A stretch of 64,000 nucleotides of DNA, taken from positions 34,237 through 98,236 of the forward strand of contig DVJB01000061.1 in NCBI GenBank assembly GCA_018710845.1, read 5' to 3'. The first letter of the stretch is position 1; each line of letters opens with the position of its first letter. The translations under genes and the position numbers were made by a program. Below are positions 14,356 to 54,523 of the stretch, in pieces. The notes below the pieces were generated by a model. That model worked only from the letters and a program-made list of their open reading frames with translations. It made no database searches and was not told the origin of the DNA. Source of the DNA: Candidatus Onthomonas avicola. Its GTDB lineage: Bacteria; Bacillota; Clostridia; Oscillospirales; Oscillospiraceae.

Positions 14356-16944
14356 TTACTCGGCGTCCGGCGCCACATAGGAGGCGGCATACGCGTCGTA
14401 GTCGAAGTTCTGAAGCTCGCTGATCGGATCAGCGGAGTAGGTGGCGACACGCTCGTCGTCGATCACACCAGACCAGTTCATGCCGAAGGCAAAGTCATAG
14501 GTGTTGCCGGCAGCGTCGGTGTAGCACTCCATATCGCGGGGCACGTCCTCGAGCTGAGCCTCGACAGCCTCCATGGAGGCGGGCTGCTGGAAGACCAGCA
14601 GGCCGTTCGGCTCGGTCTGGCCCAGGATGATCTCGGCCACGACCTCAGTGCGCTGGCTGTTGTAGCAGGCCAGGATGACGTCGGCCATCGGCTCGACCTC
14701 AGACCAGACCATGCCGCGGTCCATCTTCATGGAGACGATGACGGGGATGTCACCGGCCACGGAGTCGGCATACTGCAGGGCCTCCAGGTCGCCGTAGTTG
14801 GGAACGGCGGCGGCGGTGTTGCCCTTGTAGGAGCGGTTCTGCTTCTCACCGTCGATGATCATACCGGAAATGGAGGGATCACGGGCGGTGTCGGCAGTGT
14901 ACTCACCATACTGCAGGTTGGGCGGGAACCAGTAGTCATCTTCGGAGAACAGGGTGCCGTTCTGATAGGCCTCCATGTAGTCCCAAGCGCTGAGATAGCC
15001 GTCATAGTAAGAGATGAGATAGGGGTTGCTCATACCGACCAGGATGTAGTCGCACGCGGCGATCTCCTCGGCGGTTGCACGGGTCAGGTCGTCCTTGGTG
15101 TAGGTGGCGTTGCCATCGGCGTCCGCCTCACCGGAGGGGTCACCCAGGGTGTCGGTGACGACGTTGAAGTACTGGCCCAGGACCTCGAGATCCATGCCGG
15201 GGGTCCAAGAGGGAGTGCCCTCGCTCACGCCGCCCATCCAGCTCACGCTGAAGCCGGTGTTGTAGACATAGGGGACATAGACGGTGGGCTTCTCAGTGGA
15301 CTCGCCCTCGGCAGCCGCGATGGTGCCGTCGTTCTTCAGCATGACGACGCTCTGACGCTGAGTCTCCAGGCCGAACTCGCTGGCCTCGCCGGTGGAGATG
15401 ATCTCATCGGCATAGGCGGAGTCGCTGTAGGGCTGGTCAAACATGTTCAGGTTCATCATGACCAGGATGTAGTTGTAGGCCGCGTGGCTGACGATCTCGT
15501 CAGCGGCCTCCTGGCCGTTGCGCTCCACCAGGACGTTGTAGGCCTCGGCCACGGTCTCCATGGTGCCATAGCCGCCCAGCAGCTCGACGCCCTGCTCCCA
15601 GCCGAACGCAATGCGCTCGGCCTCAGAGGCGAGGTCCTCAGCGCCCCAGACACCGGCGAAGGTGAAGATGCCCCAGTCGGTGATCTTCAGGCTGTCATAG
15701 CCAAACTCGTCCAGCATGCCATACATATAGGCGTTGTAGGCGCCGGCCAGCTCTTCGCCGCCGTAGGGGTTACCCTCGCCGTCCACGTTGACGGAGTACT
15801 GGGTCATGATACCGGAGGAGCCGGTCAGGCCGGGCAGGGAGAACACGCCGTCAAAATAGGTGATCAGGTGCGCTTCCAGGTTGTCGCCCGGGAACACGGC
15901 GTAGCGCGCGGAGACGTGGTGGTCATCTCGGCCACCCTCGGTCGCGCCGGCGCCGGCATAGTGCTTGGTGAAGCAGTAGACGGACTCATCGCCCCAGCCC
16001 AGATCGGTGCCGTCCTCGGCATAGGTGGACTGCATCGCGTTGACATAGGCGGTGGCAATGTCCAGCGTCAGCTGCGGATCCTCACCATAGGTGCCACCGG
16101 CACGGCTCATGGTGGGGGAGGCGATGTCCACCTGAGGACCGAGCAGGGCGGTGACGCCGGCCGCGCGGTACTGCTTGGCGGTCTCATTGCCGATCTCCGC
16201 GGCCAGCTCGGGATCCATGGTCGCGGCCAGAGAGACGGTCTCGATCATGCCGGAGATATTGGCGGGGTCGATGGAGATCATCGCGGGGATGCCGTAATAG
16301 CAGCTCTCAGCCACGGCCTGAATGGCGTTGGCCCACTTGGCGTGGTCGCCGCCGCCGCGGCCGATATTACGGGTGACGCCGCCGCGGCCGCCGGCCTGCA
16401 GATAGGTGGCGGAGCCGTCGTCAGCGGTGAGGGGATCAGTGGTGAAGTCGCCCCAGCCGCCGTGGGCCAGGATCGCGGCCATCTCGGAACCCTGCATCAG
16501 GCTGATCAGGTTCTCCGCGCGCTCCTCGCTGGACAGACGCCAGTCCTCATAGGGGTCCAGCTCGCCGTTCTGGTTCAGGTCCTTGAAGGCGTAGCCGTCA
16601 GCCTCGACGACATGGACGCCGGAGTTGGGGGACAGGCCCAGGGTCTCGCCGTCCTGGTTCTCAATCATGATCCAGCCGTCGGCGGTCTCGGTGACGGTGT
16701 ACAGGGCGCCGTCGCCGGGCTCCGGGATGTAGGTCTCCGCCGTCAGGGCGAGGGCGGGAGCCTCCTCTTCGGGTGTCTCCTCAGGGGTCTCTTCGGGGGT
16801 CTCAGCGGCATCATCAGTGGTGGTGTCACTGGTGGTGTCGTCCGCCGCAGTGTCGTCTGTCGTGGTGTCGCCGCCGCATGCGGCCAGGCTGAACACCATC
16901 ATCAGAGCGAGCAGCAGGGCCAGAAACCGGTTGCTGTGCTTCAT
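14356..16944 (-). CDS. Glycoside hydrolase family 3 lipoprotein
   Basis: Lipobox (MVFSLAACGG), acidic T/D/E linker, GH3 N-domain (GGTYGEDPQL, FTKHYAGAG, SLKITDWG) and C-domain (ETQRQSVVMLKND). Confidence 0.85.
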   Translation of the reverse strand: MKHSNRFLALLLALMMVFSLAACGGDTTTDDTAADDTTSDTTTDDAAETPEETPEETPEEEAPALALTAETYIPEPGDGALYTVTETADGWIMIENQDGETLGLSPNSGVHVVEADGYAFKDLNQNGELDPYEDWRLSSEERAENLISLMQGSEMAAILAHGGWGDFTTDPLTADDGSATYLQAGGRGGVTRNIGRGGGDHAKWANAIQAVAESCYYGIPAMISIDPANISGMIETVSLAATMDPELAAEIGNETAKQYRAAGVTALLGPQVDIASPTMSRAGGTYGEDPQLTLDIATAYVNAMQSTYAEDGTDLGWGDESVYCFTKHYAGAGATEGGRDDHHVSARYAVFPGDNLEAHLITYFDGVFSLPGLTGSSGIMTQYSVNVDGEGNPYGGEELAGAYNAYMYGMLDEFGYDSLKITDWGIFTFAGVWGAEDLASEAERIAFGWEQGVELLGGYGTMETVAEAYNVLVERNGQEAADEIVSHAAYNYILVMMNLNMFDQPYSDSAYADEIISTGEASEFGLETQRQSVVMLKNDGTIAAAEGESTEKPTVYVPYVYNTGFSVSWMGGVSEGTPSWTPGMDLEVLGQYFNVVTDTLGDPSGEADADGNATYTKDDLTRATAEEIAACDYILVGMSNPYLISYYDGYLSAWDYMEAYQNGTLFSEDDYWFPPNLQYGEYTADTARDPSISGMIIDGEKQNRSYKGNTAAAVPNYGDLEALQYADSVAGDIPVIVSMKMDRGMVWSEVEPMADVILACYNSQRTEVVAEIILGQTEPNGLLVFQQPASMEAVEAQLEDVPRDMECYTDAAGNTYDFAFGMNWSGVIDDERVATYSADPISELQNFDYDAYAASYVAPDAE

Positions 16945-37395: not shown

Positions 37396-38990
37396 AACAG
37401 AGAATTCCCAAAGAGCTCTCCGAGCTGAAATACACCAGCCGCCGGCGCAGCATCTTCAGCCAGCTGGCCAAACTGCTGACCCACCGGGTCTTCTTCGTCG
37501 GCCTGTTTATTGTCCTGCAATTGGCGGTGCTGGTGCTGATGGTGGCCTATTTTTCCAGCTACTTCATCCAGTTTTATATCTTCTGCGTGGTGATCAGCTG
37601 GATCAGCGTCCTGTGGATCGTCAACCGCAACAGCCACCCGGACTACAAGATCGCCTGGATCGTCCCCATCATGGCCTTTCCGCTCTTTGGCGGGCTGTTC
37701 TACCTCCTGTTCGGCGGCAATCAGCTCTCTCAGTGGAACCAGCGCCGGATGGAGCGCCTGGGCAAGATGACGCGCGAGGCGCTCAAGCGCGAGGGGCAGG
37801 AGGCGGAGAACATCATCGCCTCCAACCCCGCGGCGGGAAACCAGTCGCGCTATCTCTTCCGCACGAGCGGCTGCCCGCCGCATGTGCGCACCGACGCGGT
37901 CTATTTCCCCACCGGGGAGGCGGTGTGGAAGAGCATGCTCGAGGAGATTTCCAAGGCTGAGCACTTTGTCTTCCTGGAGGTCTTTATCATCGAGGAGGGC
38001 GTGATGTGGAACACCATGCTCGATATCCTGGAGGAGAAGGCAAAGCAGGGCGTGGACGTGCGGCTGCTCTATGACGACATTGGTAGTCTCTTCACCGTCC
38101 CGAAAAACTATGCCAAGCAGATGCAGCAGCGCGGCATCTCCTGCGCGGTCTTCAATCCCTTCCGCCCGGTGGTCTCCATCCGCCTGAACAACCGCGACCA
38201 CCGGAAGATCTGCGTCGTGGACGGCCACACCGGTTACACCGGCGGCATCAATCTGGCCGACGAGTATATCAACGTGAAGGAGCGCTTCGGCTACTGGAAG
38301 GACAACGGCATCCTCCTGCGCGGCGAGGCGGTGTGGAACCTGACGGTGATGTTTTTGGCCAATTGGGACTACACCACCGGCATGCATGAGAGCTTTGAGG
38401 CGTACCGCCCCGCCGTGTGGCCCGGAGAGCCGTATACCGGTCCCGGCGTGATCCAACCCTACAGCGACAGTCCGCTCACCCAGGAGGCGGTGGGCTGCAA
38501 CGTCTATCTCAACCTGATCAACCGCGCCACCCGCTATATCTATATCACCACGCCCTATCTGGTGATTGACCATACCCTCACCGTCGCCCTTCAGACGGCG
38601 GCCAAGTCGGGCGTGGACGTGCGCATCATCACGCCGCATATCCCGGACAAGAAAAAGGTCTTTGAGGTCACGCGCGCGCACTATCCCGCCCTGCTGGAGG
38701 CGGGGGTCAAGATCTATGAGTTTACGCCCGGCTTTATCCACGCCAAGACCTTCGTCGTCGATGACCTTTACGGCGTGGTGGGCACGATCAATCTGGACTA
38801 CCGCAGCCTCTACCTGCACTTTGAGTGCGGCGTGTGGATCTATGACCATCCGGTGGTCCACGACATCCGCGACGATTTCCTGGAGACAATGTCCCAAAGC
38901 CAGGAGGTCTGCCTGGAGAGCGCCACCCGCCTGGGCTGGCTCAAGCGGTTCTACCGCGCGCTGCTGCGGCTGTTTGCGCCGCTGCTGTGA
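37392..38990 (+). CDS. cls: Cardiolipin synthase
   Basis: Two HxK(x)4D motifs: DHRKICVVDGHTGYTGGINLADEY and HAKTFVVDDLYGVVGTINLDYRS; two N-terminal TMs. Confidence 0.93.
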   Translation: MKQRIPKELSELKYTSRRRSIFSQLAKLLTHRVFFVGLFIVLQLAVLVLMVAYFSSYFIQFYIFCVVISWISVLWIVNRNSHPDYKIAWIVPIMAFPLFGGLFYLLFGGNQLSQWNQRRMERLGKMTREALKREGQEAENIIASNPAAGNQSRYLFRTSGCPPHVRTDAVYFPTGEAVWKSMLEEISKAEHFVFLEVFIIEEGVMWNTMLDILEEKAKQGVDVRLLYDDIGSLFTVPKNYAKQMQQRGISCAVFNPFRPVVSIRLNNRDHRKICVVDGHTGYTGGINLADEYINVKERFGYWKDNGILLRGEAVWNLTVMFLANWDYTTGMHESFEAYRPAVWPGEPYTGPGVIQPYSDSPLTQEAVGCNVYLNLINRATRYIYITTPYLVIDHTLTVALQTAAKSGVDVRIITPHIPDKKKVFEVTRAHYPALLEAGVKIYEFTPGFIHAKTFVVDDLYGVVGTINLDYRSLYLHFECGVWIYDHPVVHDIRDDFLETMSQSQEVCLESATRLGWLKRFYRALLRLFAPLL

Positions 38991-39004
38991 GTGACAACCA
39001 AGAG

Positions 39005-39219
39005 CAGACTGTCGAAAAAGGTCTCACCGAGTTTGGCTCGAAGAGCCAAATAGAGTTCAATTCATTTTTGGCACGGGCGTGTACCGGGCCAAAAATACTG
39101 ATAGTCCGGCAAGTGTACGGATTTTTGGAACAAAAATCCGTGCGCGCGGTCGGACTGCAGACTCGCGCAAATGCTTGCATTTGCGCGAAAGGCTGTCAAA
39201 AATACTTTTTTGACAGCCT
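39005..39219. mobile_element. MITE-like dispersed element, copy 1
   Basis: 15-bp TIRs (AGACTGTCGAAAAAG / CTTTTTTGACAGCCT), flanked by the exact 10-bp direct repeat CAACCAAGAG (38995-39004 and 39220-39229); homologous to 54215-54476. Confidence 0.85.
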
Positions 39220-39237
39220 CAACCAAGAGACCGCCGT

Positions 39238-39272
39238 CCCCGCCGCAGGCCGAGCCCGCGGCGGGGATTTTT
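39238..39272 (+). terminator. Intrinsic terminator of cls, displaced by the MITE-like insertion
   Basis: CCCCGCCGC-aggccgagccc-GCGGCGGGG-ATTTTT. Confidence 0.75.
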
Positions 39273-39410
39273 GCGCTGGGCAGAGTGGGAGGCGGCCTTT
39301 TTTGGGCGGGAGGACAAAAAATGATTGCCTTCACCGATGGAATGTGCTAAACTGTTCACAATCTGTCAAAACACCATGAATAATCTGTGAACGAGATGGG
39401 AGGAACTGTT

Positions 39411-44714: not shown

Positions 44715-44855
44715 TATAACTTATGGATATTGCATGGCATCTTACGCAAGAAAATGAACAATTTGTGAAAAAAGACTTTTCTGCAAGCCGGAACTGTGCT
44801 ATACTGTGCAATGCTTAGGAAGCGACTTTATGTAAAAGAAGGAGGAAAACAAACC

Positions 44856-47822
44856 ATGCTAGCAATCAACTGGAACGACGTATGGAATGTGGTCAGCCTG
44901 GTCTTACCCCACCTGATCGCCATCGTTGTTGCGCTCATCGTGATGATCGCAGTGATCGTCGCGGTGATGAAGCAGCCCAAGCCCCTCAAACGCCTCATCC
45001 GGGGCGAGGCGGGCGTGGCCTTCGTCCTGGTGGTCCTGATCGTGGTCAACCTGATGACTGGTCCGCTGGAGACCCTGCTCACGTCCGTGGCGGGCAAGCC
45101 CCTGCGCGAGATCAGCGAGGAGAGCACCACCACCGCCACCGAGCTGGCGGCGGAGATCATCGCGGAGGGCACCGTTCTCCTGGAGAACGAGGACAACCTG
45201 CTGCCTCTGGGCTCCGACATCACGCTGAACGTGTTCGGCTGGGCGTCCTACAGCCCTGTCTACGGCGGCACGGGTTCCGGCTCCCTGAACGCGTCCTATC
45301 CCACCACCACCCTGATCGACGGCCTGAATCAGGCCGGCATCAGCACCAACACCGAGCTGACCGACTTCTACGCCGAGTACTGCGCCAGCCGTCCCTCCGT
45401 GTCCATGGGCGCCCAGGACTGGACGCTGCCCGAGCCCAACGTGAACCTGTACACCGATGAGATGATGACCAGCGCCAAGGAGTTCTCCGACACCGCGATG
45501 GTGGTCATCGGCCGTGTCGGCGGCGAGGGCGCGGACCTGCCCACCGACATGATGTCGGTAGTGAATGGTACCTGGATGAGTGAAAATACTCAGGGCGGCC
45601 TGAGCGCTTACTACAACGGCACCTACAACGAAGACCTCAACGAGGGCGCTGACTGGGACGAGGGCGACCACTTCCTGCAGCTGTCCAACCGCGAAGAGGA
45701 CCTGCTCGACCTGGTGTGCGAGAACTTTGACAACGTCATCGTCCTCTACAACGGCGCCAACCCCTTCGAGCTGGGCTTCGTGGAGGAATATCCCCAGATC
45801 AAGAGCGTCCTCTGGTGCGCCGGCGCCGGTCAGCCCGGCTTCACCGGCCTGGGCCAGGTGCTCTCCGGCGCGGCGAACCCCTCCGGCAAGCTGATCGACA
45901 CCTATGTGTACGACCTGACCACCACCCCGACCTGGAACAACTTTGGTAACTTCGGTTACACCAATATGGAAGAGTTCCGCTGCACCGCTGGCTTCAGCGA
46001 GGACGGCGTCCCCACCTTCGTCAACTACAACGAGGGCATCTATGTCGGCTACAAGTTCTATGAGACCGCCGCAGCCGAGGGCCTGATCAACTATGAGGAG
46101 ACCGTCCAGTATCCCTTCGGCTATGGCATGAGCTACACCTCCTTCACCCAGGAGATGCAGAACTTCGCCTTTGACGGGACCAACGTCACCTTCGACGTCG
46201 TCGTCACCAACACCGGCTCGGTCGCCGGCAAGGACGTGGTCGAGGTTTACTACAACCCGCCTTACACCAACGGCGGCATTGAGAAGGCGTCTGCCAACCT
46301 GATCGACTTCGGCAAGACCGGCCTGCTCGAGCCGAACGCCTCTGAGACTATCAGCTTCAGCATCGCGGCGGAAGATTTCGCTTCCTATGACTATCAGACC
46401 GCCGGCTGCTATGTGCTGGAGGCGGGCGACTATGTCATCTCCATCAACGCTGACTCTCACACCGTTCTCGACTCCGAGACCTTCTCCATCGAGAGCCCCA
46501 TCACCTATGACGAGAACAACAAGCGCGAGAGCGATCAGGTCGCCGCTGTCAACCAGTTCGACTTCGCCCGCGGTGAGTTCACCGTCCTCTCCCGCGCCGA
46601 CGGCTTTGCCAACTATGATGAGGCGACCGCCGCTCCCACCAACTTTGAGATGGATGAGGAGTCCAAGGCCGGCTTCTATCACACCAGCTATGTGAACGAC
46701 GACAGCGCCTCCATCGCCGATGAGGACCCGGATGCCGAGCCCATCACCACCGGCGCGGACAACGGACTGCAGCTCGCCGACCTGCGCGGCGTGGCCTATG
46801 ACGATCCGCAGTGGGATCTGCTGCTCGACCAGCTCACCCTGGAGGAGATGACCGACCTGATTGCCCTGGGCGGTTATCAGACTCTGGCCATTGAGTCCAT
46901 CGGCAAGTACCGCACGAACGACTGCGACGGCCCGGCCTCCATCAACAACAACTTCACCGGTCAGGGCTCCGTCGGCTTCCCGGCTGGCGTCATGATCGCC
47001 GCCACCTGGAGCAAGGACATCGCCTATCGCTTCGGCTCCTCCATCGGCGACATGGCCAACCAGATGGACACCGCCGGCTGGTATGCCCCAGCGATGAACA
47101 TCCACCGCAACGCCTTCGCCGGCCGTAACTTCGAGTACTACTCCGAGGACGGCGTCCTCTCTGGCATAATCGCCTCCCAGGGCGCGATGGGCGCCGCTCA
47201 GTACGGTGTGTACGCCTACCTGAAGCACTTCGCCCTCAACGACCAGGAGGGTAACCGGAACACCATGCTCTGCACCTGGGCGGACGAGCAGACCATCCGT
47301 GAGATCTATCTGAAGCCCTTCGAGATCTGCGTGAAGGACAACGTCGAGATGGGCGGCGCCACCGCCGGCTATCCTCTGGCCATCATGTCCTCCTTCAACT
47401 ACATCGGCAACCGCTGGACCGGCGGCTGCAACGAGCTGTGCAACGTCGTCCTGCGCGATGAGTGGGGACTTCAGGGCATGGTCCTGACCGACTATTTCGG
47501 CGTGTACGGCTACATGAACGCCGACCAGGCCATCCGCAACGGCACCGACTTCTGCCTGGTCAACTATGAGACCGAGACCAGCCGGGTTCGCTTCCAGGAG
47601 ACCAACGGCGCGCAGCAGGCGATGCGCACTGCCACCAAGAATATCCTCTACACTGTGGTCAACAGCCGCCAGTACAGCGAGGATGGCATCGCTTACTCCC
47701 TGACCCCGAACCGCTGGGAGACCATCCTGACCGGCGTCAACATCGGCGTGGGTGTGGTTCTGGCCGCCTGGGAAGTGCTGCTGATTGTCAACTACATGAA
47801 GCGCAAGAAGGCCGCGAAGTAA
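44856..47822 (+). CDS. Membrane-anchored GH3 glycosidase with permuted domain order
   Basis: N-terminal TMs, then GH3 C-domain (EGTVLLENEDNLLPL) and FnIII-like region (YPFGYGMSYTSF), then TIM-barrel (LTLEEMTDLI ... KHFALNDQE ... VLTDYFG), then C-terminal TM (VVLAAWEVLLIVNYMKRKK). Confidence 0.88.
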   Translation: MLAINWNDVWNVVSLVLPHLIAIVVALIVMIAVIVAVMKQPKPLKRLIRGEAGVAFVLVVLIVVNLMTGPLETLLTSVAGKPLREISEESTTTATELAAEIIAEGTVLLENEDNLLPLGSDITLNVFGWASYSPVYGGTGSGSLNASYPTTTLIDGLNQAGISTNTELTDFYAEYCASRPSVSMGAQDWTLPEPNVNLYTDEMMTSAKEFSDTAMVVIGRVGGEGADLPTDMMSVVNGTWMSENTQGGLSAYYNGTYNEDLNEGADWDEGDHFLQLSNREEDLLDLVCENFDNVIVLYNGANPFELGFVEEYPQIKSVLWCAGAGQPGFTGLGQVLSGAANPSGKLIDTYVYDLTTTPTWNNFGNFGYTNMEEFRCTAGFSEDGVPTFVNYNEGIYVGYKFYETAAAEGLINYEETVQYPFGYGMSYTSFTQEMQNFAFDGTNVTFDVVVTNTGSVAGKDVVEVYYNPPYTNGGIEKASANLIDFGKTGLLEPNASETISFSIAAEDFASYDYQTAGCYVLEAGDYVISINADSHTVLDSETFSIESPITYDENNKRESDQVAAVNQFDFARGEFTVLSRADGFANYDEATAAPTNFEMDEESKAGFYHTSYVNDDSASIADEDPDAEPITTGADNGLQLADLRGVAYDDPQWDLLLDQLTLEEMTDLIALGGYQTLAIESIGKYRTNDCDGPASINNNFTGQGSVGFPAGVMIAATWSKDIAYRFGSSIGDMANQMDTAGWYAPAMNIHRNAFAGRNFEYYSEDGVLSGIIASQGAMGAAQYGVYAYLKHFALNDQEGNRNTMLCTWADEQTIREIYLKPFEICVKDNVEMGGATAGYPLAIMSSFNYIGNRWTGGCNELCNVVLRDEWGLQGMVLTDYFGVYGYMNADQAIRNGTDFCLVNYETETSRVRFQETNGAQQAMRTATKNILYTVVNSRQYSEDGIAYSLTPNRWETILTGVNIGVGVVLAAWEVLLIVNYMKRKKAAK

Positions 47823-48009: not shown

Positions 48010-50436
48010 ATGCTGAAACATCAAGACCTGATTGAACAAATGACATTGGAGGAGAAATGTTATCTGCTCTCCGGACGGGATTTCTGGGCCAGCAGAAGCG
48101 TTTCGCGCCTGGGCGTGCCGAGCATGAGCATGTCCGACGGACCGCACGGCCTGCGCAAGCAGGAGGGCTCCGGTGACCAGCTGGGCCTGAACCCGTCTGC
48201 GCCGGCGACCTGCTTCCCCACCGCGGCGACCGTCGCCAACTCCTGGGACCCGGCGCTGGGCGAGGAGATCGGCAAGCTGCTGGGCGAAGAGGCGGTCTCC
48301 CAGGATGTGTCGGTTGTCCTCGGCCCCGGACTGAACATCAAGCGCAGCCCTCTGTGCGGCCGTAACTTTGAGTACTTCTCTGAGGACCCCTATCTGGCCG
48401 GCAAGATGGCGGCCGGCTATGTCCGCGGCATCCAGTCCAAGGGCGTCGCCGCCTGCCCGAAGCACTTCGCCTGCAACTCGCAGGAGCTGCGGCGCATGGC
48501 CTCCAACTCCGTCGTGGACGAGCGGACCCTGCGGGAGATCTACCTGACCGGCTTTGAGATCGCCGTCAAGGAGAGCGACCCGCTGGCGCTGATGACCTCT
48601 TACAACCAGGTCAACGGCGTCTACGCCAACGAGAACCGCCACCTGCTGCGCGAGATCCTGAAGGACGAGTGGGGCTTCAACGGATACGTCGTCTCCGACT
48701 GGGGCGGCTCGAACGACCACGTCGCCGGCGTGCTGGCCGGCTCTCACCTGGAGATGCCCACCAGCGGCGGCGACTCCGACCCCGAGCTGATCGAGGCGGT
48801 CCAGAGCGGCAAGGTCCCGGAGGAGTGGCTGAACACCATCGTGGACGAGTTCCTCGACGTGGTCCTGCGCACGCACCCGGCTGTGGCCGAGGGGCAGGGC
48901 AAGCCCTTTGACAAGGAGGCTCACCACGCCGCCGCCCGCCGCGCCAGCGAGCAGTCGGTCGTTCTGCTGAAGAATGAGGACGGGATTCTCCCCCTGTCCG
49001 CCGGCACCCGCGTCGCCCTGATCGGCGACTTTGCCGAGACGCCGCGCTATCAGGGCGCCGGCTCCTCCGTGGTCAACCCGATCAAGCTGGAGAGCACGAA
49101 GGACGTCATCGGCGACAGCGGGCTGGACTGCATCGGCTTTGCCCGCGGCTACACCCGTACCGGCGGTCCGGACGCCGCGCTGCAGGAGGAGGCCTGCCAG
49201 CTGGCTGAAAAGGCGGACGTGGTCCTGCTGTGCATCGGCCTGGACGAGATCTCCGAGGCGGAGGGCCTGGACCGGAAGCATATGCGCATCCCCGACTGCC
49301 AGATTCAGCTCCTGGAGGCCCTGGCCCGGGTGAACCAGAAGATCGTCGTTATTTTCTCCGGCGGCTCCGCCGTTGAGATGCCCTGGCTGGGCAGCTGCAA
49401 GGCACTGGTGCACGGCTATCTGTGCGGCCAGGCGGGCGCGGCCGGCGTGCTCAACGTCGTCACCGGCAAGGTCAACCCCTCCGGCCGTCTGGCGGAGAGC
49501 TATCCCATCCGCTATGAGGATGTCTCCTCTGAGCCGTATTTCCCCAGCGAACAGCGCTCCTCCGAGTATCGCGAGAGCGTCTATGTCGGCTATCGCTACT
49601 ATGAGACGGCGAATGTGCCCGTCCTCTTCCCGTTTGGCTTTGGCCTGAGCTACACCACCTTTGCCTATTCCGACCTGAAGGTCACCGGGAAGCAGGCCAC
49701 CTTCACCCTCAAGAACACCGGCGTGGTGGACGGCGCGGAGGTCGCGCAGCTCTATGTTTCCCGCACCGATGGAAAGGTGTTCCGCCCGGTCAAGGAGCTC
49801 AAGGGCTTCCAGAAGGTCTTCCTGAAGGCGGGAGAGAGCAAGAAGGTCACCATCCCGCTTGACGACAAGGCGTTCCGCTACTTCAACGTCAAGACCAACC
49901 GCTTTGAGATCGAGGGCGGCACCTATCAGGTGATGATCGGCGCGTCTGTGGCTGACATTAAGCTCAGCGCCCCCATCGAGGTGAAGGGCACGGACGCCCC
50001 GCTGCCGTACGACCCGGCGACCCTGCCGAGCTACTACTCCGGCAAGATCACCGCCGTCTCCGACGCGGAGTATGAGACGCTTTACGGCGGCCCGGTTCCG
50101 GACGGCCATTGGAACTCCGGCGGCCTGCTGGAGATGAACGACGCGCTGTGCCAGATGTACTACGCGAAGAACCCGATCGCCCGCCTGGTCTATAAGATTC
50201 TGACCAGCCTGATCGAGAAGGCAGAGGCCAAGGGCAAGCCCGACCTGAACCTCCTGTTCATCTACAATATGCCCTTCCGCGGCATCGCCAAGATGACCGG
50301 CGGCGCGTGCACGATGGAGATGGCGGAGGGCATCCTGACCATGGTCAACGGCCACTTCTTCAAGGGCGTAGGAAAGGTGCTGGGCGGCCTGGGCCGTGCC
50401 GGCAAGAAGCAGAAGAAAGCCAGCGAGATGAAGTGA
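48010..50436 (+). CDS. GH3 beta-glucosidase-like protein with FnIII-like domain and C-terminal extension
   Basis: MTLEEKCYLLSGRDFW, SMSDGPHGLRKQEG, KHFACNSQELRR, YVVSDWGG, SEQSVVLLKNEDGILPL. Confidence 0.93.
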   Translation: MLKHQDLIEQMTLEEKCYLLSGRDFWASRSVSRLGVPSMSMSDGPHGLRKQEGSGDQLGLNPSAPATCFPTAATVANSWDPALGEEIGKLLGEEAVSQDVSVVLGPGLNIKRSPLCGRNFEYFSEDPYLAGKMAAGYVRGIQSKGVAACPKHFACNSQELRRMASNSVVDERTLREIYLTGFEIAVKESDPLALMTSYNQVNGVYANENRHLLREILKDEWGFNGYVVSDWGGSNDHVAGVLAGSHLEMPTSGGDSDPELIEAVQSGKVPEEWLNTIVDEFLDVVLRTHPAVAEGQGKPFDKEAHHAAARRASEQSVVLLKNEDGILPLSAGTRVALIGDFAETPRYQGAGSSVVNPIKLESTKDVIGDSGLDCIGFARGYTRTGGPDAALQEEACQLAEKADVVLLCIGLDEISEAEGLDRKHMRIPDCQIQLLEALARVNQKIVVIFSGGSAVEMPWLGSCKALVHGYLCGQAGAAGVLNVVTGKVNPSGRLAESYPIRYEDVSSEPYFPSEQRSSEYRESVYVGYRYYETANVPVLFPFGFGLSYTTFAYSDLKVTGKQATFTLKNTGVVDGAEVAQLYVSRTDGKVFRPVKELKGFQKVFLKAGESKKVTIPLDDKAFRYFNVKTNRFEIEGGTYQVMIGASVADIKLSAPIEVKGTDAPLPYDPATLPSYYSGKITAVSDAEYETLYGGPVPDGHWNSGGLLEMNDALCQMYYAKNPIARLVYKILTSLIEKAEAKGKPDLNLLFIYNMPFRGIAKMTGGACTMEMAEGILTMVNGHFFKGVGKVLGGLGRAGKKQKKASEMK

Positions 50437-53993: not shown

Positions 53994-54185
53994 ACACGAT
54001 CTCCTCACTTATGTCAGATAGAGTGTTCCCTCGCAGCGATGAGCGGAGGGGAAGAGGGCAGCGCCGCTCTTCGCAGGTCAGTATATCAGAGGGAAAGAAA
54101 AGCAGCTATCACGGCGCGGTAAGAAGTTCGTAAAACTAAATATAAAAATGTAAATGACGGTAAATTAGCTCTGAGACAGGTAAAA

Positions 54186-54213
54186 GGGGCGCCGCACCCT
54201 GGTGCGGCACCCC
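54186..54213 (-). terminator. GC palindrome adjacent to the MITE-like copy 2; terminator-like on the minus strand
   Basis: GGGGCGCCGCACCCTGGTGCGGCACCCC; minus strand followed by TTTTAC. Confidence 0.6.
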
Positions 54214-54214
54214 A

Positions 54215-54476
54215 CAGACTGTCAAAAAAGGTCTCACCGAGTTTGGCTCGAAGAGCCAAATAGAGTCCAATTCATTTTTGGCACGGGCATGTACCCCCCA
54301 GGGGGCCTTCTCTCGCCCCTGCGGGGCGATTCACCTTGACCGGGCCAAAAATACTGATAGTCCGACAAGTGTGCGGATTTTTGGGACAAAAATCCGTGCG
54401 CGTGGGAGGACTGCAAAACTCGCGCAAATGCTTGCATTTGCGCGAAAGGCTGTCAAAAACACTTTTTTGACAGCCT
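54215..54476. mobile_element. MITE-like dispersed element, copy 2 (with a 46-bp internal insertion)
   Basis: TIRs AGACTGTCAAAAAAG / CTTTTTTGACAGCCT; near-identical to 39005-39219 apart from 54296-54341. Confidence 0.82.
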
Positions 54477-54478
54477 CA

Positions 54479-54506
54479 GGGGTGCCGCACCCCGGTGCGG
54501 CACCCC
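54479..54506. repeat. Second copy of the 28-bp GC palindrome flanking the MITE-like copy 2
   Basis: GGGGTGCCGCACCCCGGTGCGGCACCCC, 26/28 identical to 54186-54213. Confidence 0.8.
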
Positions 54507-54523
54507 AAAGATCATGTGCTGTA

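What the first reader, a model, noticed from the sequence alone, without database searches (positions are those of the whole stretch)
38995..39229. MITE-like, five-hairpin element with 15-bp TIRs and an exact 10-bp target-site duplication
Seen directly: between cls and putP lies a 215-bp block bounded by near-perfect inverted repeats (AGACTGTCGAAAAAG / CTTTTTTGACAGCCT). Just outside is the exact direct repeat CAACCAAGAG on both sides. Internally it is a chain of hairpins: TTTGGCTC-gaa-GAGCCAAA; ATTTTTGGC...GCCAAAAAT; CGGATTTTTG-gaa-CAAAAATCCG; CGCGCAAATGC-tt-GCATTTGCGCG; GGCTGTCAAAAA...TTTTTGACAGCC. A second copy lies 15 kb away. Several loop bases and linkers differ while the stems are kept, which points to selected structure. 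No long coding frame is shared. Inference: a non-autonomous transposon family, possibly also a structured RNA.
Basis: partly seen in the sequence, partly recalled or inferred. Interest (0 to 1): 0.82.

Follow-up and report, generated by a model that had tools for sequence, protein, structure and literature searches.

The report
Folded mini-transposon duplicating terminator hairpins
This is one copy of an abundant gene-less mobile DNA element, probably moved by IS1182-family transposases, that usually lands at the foot of a hairpin such as a gene's terminator and leaves a copy of that hairpin on each side; its folded core is kept by compensating mutations across an order of gut bacteria.

Summary
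In detail: 39005-39219 is a 215-bp element with inverted-repeat ends, five hairpins (z -11) and a 9-10-bp direct repeat. It belongs to a family with about 57 matching places in this 2.39-Mb genome. The 10-bp duplication is the exception: 36 of 48 fully bounded copies (22 of 30 in this genome) are flanked by two copies of a whole, locus-specific stem-loop, cut within about 0-2 nt of the stem foot. An orthologous site in a congeneric genome has one hairpin and no element. IS1182-family insertion sequences of relatives have matching ends (CAGnnTGTCAAAAA) and the same duplications (8 of 12 bounded copies, seven exact, 21-41 bp), so they are the likely mobilisers. The described members IS1272/TnSha1 also attack terminator hairpins but delete them. 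The folded core (hairpins 1-2, loop GCRTGTA) was found in 15 of 148 genera sampled in the order, with changes on both sides in 12 of 21 base pairs. It is absent from the IS1182 elements examined, so this is not a simple IS deletion derivative. Its role as RNA or DNA is untested. New variant of a known kind.

The parts
39005..39219 (+). The element, 215-bp subtype (may end at 39220)
38995..39004 (+). Left direct repeat CAACCAAGAG
39220..39229 (+). Right direct repeat CAACCAAGAG (possibly 9 bp, 39221-39229)
39005..39020 (+). Left end CAGACTGTCGAAAAAG, like IS1182 ends in relatives
39205..39219 (+). Right end CTTTTTTGACAGCCT; congeneric IS1182 ends TTTTTTGACAGGCTG
39017..39104 (+). Conserved core, covariance model R1
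39032..39050 (+). Hairpin 1
39064..39096 (+). Hairpin 2 with conserved loop GCGTGTA (39077-39083)
39098..39159 (+). Hairpin 3, long stem with internal loop
39163..39188 (+). Hairpin 4
39190..39219 (+). Hairpin 5, made from the right end and an inverted copy of it
39237..39267 (+). Stem-loop just downstream, probable terminator of cls, single copy here
54215..54476 (+). Second copy, 262-bp subtype
54185..54214 (+). Left copy of the duplicated hairpin AGGGGCGCCGCACCCTGGTGCGGCACCCCA
54478..54507 (+). Right copy of the same hairpin, 28 of 30 identical

Best explanation
A non-autonomous element moved in trans by an IS1182-family DDE transposase that recognises CAGnnTGTCAAAAA ends and picks targets by shape, not sequence. 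It recognises a stem-loop, often a terminator, and joins the element's ends at the foot of the stem; gap repair then leaves a whole copy of the hairpin on each side. Where the target is a terminator, the copy farther from the gene keeps the T tract, so the insertion should do little harm and the element becomes part of the 3' untranslated region. At non-palindromic sites, as at 39005, it leaves 7-10 bp. The folded core is kept by selection on the element. SHOWN: the copies, the ends, the hairpin duplications, one clean empty site, the same anatomy in IS1182 elements of relatives, covariation. INFERRED: mobilisation in trans, recognition of a cruciform or single-stranded hairpin, harmlessness, and the reason the core is kept.
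For: About 57 places in the genome. 36 of 48 bounded copies have whole-hairpin duplications of 21-42 bp; median fold energy -25.8 kcal/mol, reached by 0.15% of control segments. Empty site in G025 with a single 38-bp hairpin. IS1182 transposase (NF033551, 393.9 bits) elements with matching ends and whole-hairpin duplications in 8 of 12. Congeneric IS1182 with right end TTTTTTGACAGGCTG. Covariation.
Against: The reported copy itself has a non-palindromic 9-10-bp duplication, and 12 of 48 copies lack a hairpin duplication. The own genome holds only a truncated IS1182. Only the outer 14-16 bp are shared with the IS; the core is not. T tracts are only moderately enriched beside the targets. No transposition data.
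Confidence: 0.83

Rival explanations
1. The element is primarily a functional structured RNA (3'-UTR or small-RNA module) that spread by transposition; selection on the RNA keeps the fold.
For: Strong covariation and a conserved loop across genera; placement at gene ends would put it in transcripts.
Against: No Rfam match; dozens of divergent copies per genome and fixed transposon ends fit a mobile element; no expression data.
Confidence: 0.2
2. Stems look conserved only because hairpin arms repair each other (templated correction), without selection.
For: Long inverted repeats can be homogenised this way (general knowledge).
Against: A constant A-G mismatch inside hairpin 2, the conserved loop GCRTGTA and conserved unpaired CTC[GA]C[CA]GAGTT persist while stems change.
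Confidence: 0.12
3. The flanking hairpins are parts of the element and not duplicated target.
For: Most copies have a hairpin on each side.
Against: The hairpin sequence differs at each locus, and the G025 empty site has one copy of it without the element.
Confidence: 0.02
4. The family is moved by another transposase with 10-bp duplications, and the hairpin pattern is a side effect of homology at terminators.
For: The reported copy has a 9-10-bp duplication; two others have 7 and 8 bp.
Against: Most copies, and the IS1182 elements with the same ends, have exact whole-hairpin duplications.
Confidence: 0.05

Closest known systems
IS1272 / TnSha1 (IS1182 family, staphylococci; PMC5678879, PMC4923244)
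   Same: IS1182-family transposase, targets are hairpins including confirmed terminators, no sequence preference.
   Different: Those replace or delete the target stem-loop and leave no duplication; here the whole stem-loop is duplicated, a pathway that PMC5678879 drew only as a possibility.
IS1182-family elements of Oscillospiraceae (for example in CCNA10, AP018533)
   Same: Same end motif and same whole-hairpin duplications.
   Different: About 1.5 kb with a transposase gene; no folded core.
Pneumococcal BOX, RUP and SPRITE repeats and other bacterial MITEs (PMC3049150, PMC10969869)
   Same: Small, abundant, gene-less, folded intergenic repeats.
   Different: From the passages read and general knowledge, not described as duplicating whole terminator hairpins; sequence similarity was not tested.

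Membership tests
MITE (non-autonomous transposon) | Short, no coding capacity, terminal inverted repeats | tested here: met
   203-305 bp, ends conserved
MITE (non-autonomous transposon) | Many dispersed copies | tested here: met
   About 57 places
MITE (non-autonomous transposon) | Target duplication and empty-site allele | tested here: met
   Copy L013 against G025; not obtainable for the reported copy
Mobilised by IS1182 family | Ends shared with autonomous elements | tested here: met
   Outer 14-16 bp
Mobilised by IS1182 family | Same target duplication as autonomous elements | tested here: met
   8 of 12 bounded IS copies
Mobilised by IS1182 family | Intact transposase in the same genome | tested here: not met
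   Only a truncated one; an intact copy could be lost at the many assembly breaks
Mobilised by IS1182 family | Transposition in trans demonstrated | not testable with these tools
   Needs an assay
IS1272-type stem-loop replacement | Target hairpin removed, no duplication | tested here: not met
   Hairpin present on both sides
Known Rfam RNA family | Match at the gathering score | tested here: not met
Structured nucleic acid under selection | Compensatory changes above controls | tested here: met
   12 of 21 pairs, 53 cells against 11.5 shuffled, 0 of 500 (MAFFT alignment); 18 of 21 in the model-fitted alignment

The most novel reading that the evidence does not exclude
An order-wide superfamily of folded elements whose conserved core (hairpins 1-2 with loop GCRTGTA) has a function of its own, as an RNA or as a folded DNA signal, and which uses IS1182-type transposases that insert at the feet of stem-loops and duplicate the whole hairpin.
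Probability: 0.35. Interest if true: 0.75.

Novelty: new variant of a known kind. Interest (0 to 1): 0.6.

Why it matters
Duplication of a whole target stem-loop by IS1182-type transposition had been drawn only as a possibility; here it is a pattern seen in dozens of insertions and in the autonomous elements too. Because the duplication length follows the hairpin, target geometry can be read directly from genomes. The covarying core gives a concrete object for testing whether gene-less mobile elements carry selected folds and what those folds do.

Tried and rejected
Rfam at the gathering score and at E up to 5: nothing credible. Simple IS deletion derivative: rejected because the core is absent from the IS1182 elements examined (the one credible hit, in L114, lies about 2 kb from the transposase match). 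Flanking hairpins as element parts: rejected by the empty site. Empty site for the 39005 copy: G025 has no element beside either gene, but cls and putP lie on different contigs there, so there is no clean allele. Literature searches found no such element described in Oscillospiraceae and no paper on whole-terminator duplication by an IS, within an open-access library only.

Full report
OBSERVATION. The block at 39005-39219 is as described, with 9-10-bp repeats at 38995-39004 and 39220-39229. Its five hairpins are in the minimum-free-energy fold, -105.8 kcal/mol against -58.8 in shuffles, z -11. The upstream gene has phospholipase-D domains (consistent with cls) and the downstream gene is a sodium:solute symporter (consistent with putP).

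FAMILY IN THE GENOME. The genome (G000, 2.39 Mb, 72 contigs) holds about 57 matching places counted over four searches. Some are halves at contig ends, and the searches score only part of their candidates. Subtypes are about 204, 215, 257-262 and 295-305 bp. At least 15 contig ends lie inside a copy.

THE TARGET IS A HAIRPIN. Of 48 bounded copies from G000, G025 and one other relative, 35 meet the criterion of a palindromic duplication of 20 bp or more (21 of 30 in G000; L017 was assigned by eye because its loop differs in length). L023, an imperfect palindrome, makes 36 (22 of 30). Lengths are 21-42 bp. The duplicated sequence differs at each locus and starts and stops within 0-2 nt of the stem foot in nearly all cases. 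Median fold energy is -25.8 kcal/mol; 0.15% of random segments from the same flanks reach it. Three G000 copies have short non-palindromic duplications of 7-10 bp (L001, which is the reported copy, L003 and L055); nine of the 48 have none that is clear.

EMPTY SITE. In G025 (same genus) the site of copy L013 is intact: the two flanks align over 1.2 kb each, at 90% and 96%, and overlap by exactly one 38-bp hairpin. The site of L020 also has one hairpin, although its left flank has diverged. For the reported copy no clean allele exists, because cls and putP lie on different contigs in G025 and neither has the element beside it.

LIKELY MOBILISER. The genome has one truncated IS1182; its right end GGTTCTTTAACAGTCTG is followed by a hairpin. 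Relatives in Oscillospiraceae carry intact copies. The transposase of L096 (strain CCNA10) scores 393.9 bits to NF033551 and has DUF772 and DDE domains. Their ends (CAGnnTGTCAAAAAAC and GTTCTTTGACAGnCTG) match the element's outer 14-16 bp, and 8 of 12 copies with both ends carry whole-hairpin duplications, seven of them exact. Two congeneric copies over the family cut-off (L199, L200) end TTTTTTGACAGGCTG. That the transposase acts on the mini-element in trans is inferred.

THE FOLDED CORE. Divergent relatives keep CTC[GA]C[CA]GAGTT, hairpin 1, a linker, and hairpin 2 with loop GCRTGTA, while the stem sequences are replaced. On an unfitted MAFFT alignment of 31 cores, 12 of 21 pairs show changes on both sides, 53 cells against 11.5 in shuffles, 0 of 500; sliding the partners destroys the signal. 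On the model-fitted alignment of 73 matches it is 18 of 21 pairs and 96.7% paired (fitted, so it leans towards the structure). A scan of 295 genomes of the order found matches at E<=1e-5 in 26 genomes, 15 of 148 genera and four families. Several distant copies also sit between duplicated palindromes (L229, L238, L241, L249). The core was not found in the IS1182 elements.

MECHANISM AND PRIOR ART. PMC5678879 proposed that IS1272 replaces a target stem-loop and noted that joining the 3' ends at the 5' feet would instead duplicate it. PMC4923244 showed TnSha1 deleting part of the target hairpin without duplication, with several targets confirmed as terminators. The anatomy here fits the duplication pathway. 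Since the copy farther from the gene keeps the T tract, termination should survive (inference). T tracts are only moderately enriched and occur on either side, so the element goes in both ways round and not all targets need be terminators.

CAVEATS. Copies are related, so the shuffles overstate significance. Arm-to-arm repair could produce some compensation, although the persistent A-G mismatch and the conserved loop argue against it as the whole explanation. E-values of the home-made model are rough. There are no expression or transposition data here.

Noticed in passing
window 54295-54339; also L024, L026, L027, L054, L055: The 257-262-bp subtype seen in the window has a 45-nt insertion, itself a hairpin, at the tip of hairpin 2. 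Its origin is unknown.
   Followed up: partly
L007:1266-1404, L061:576-638; also L082, L087, L242, L249: A second, related repeat subfamily with a changed core (CCCTCCGCAG in place of CCTCGCAGAG) occurs in this and related genomes.
   Followed up: no
G000 contigs such as C28, C36, C42, C63-C66, C70, C71: Many contigs begin or end inside a copy of the element, so the repeat breaks the assembly and intact insertion sequences may be missing.
   Followed up: no
window 38990-39390: The reported copy sits between two genes that are not neighbours in the congeneric genome G025 (contigs C29 and C34), so it lies at or near a rearrangement breakpoint.
   Followed up: partly
L097 flanks; also L005, L017, L037: The two duplicated hairpins often differ in the loop; in L097 the loop reads AGAT on one side and ATCT on the other, its reverse complement, which may reflect loop inversion.
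   Followed up: no
window 44796-47819 and 48010-50433 (+), 14356-16944 (-): Three genes with glycoside hydrolase family 3 domains; the first has the C-terminal domain ahead of the N-terminal domain.
   Followed up: no
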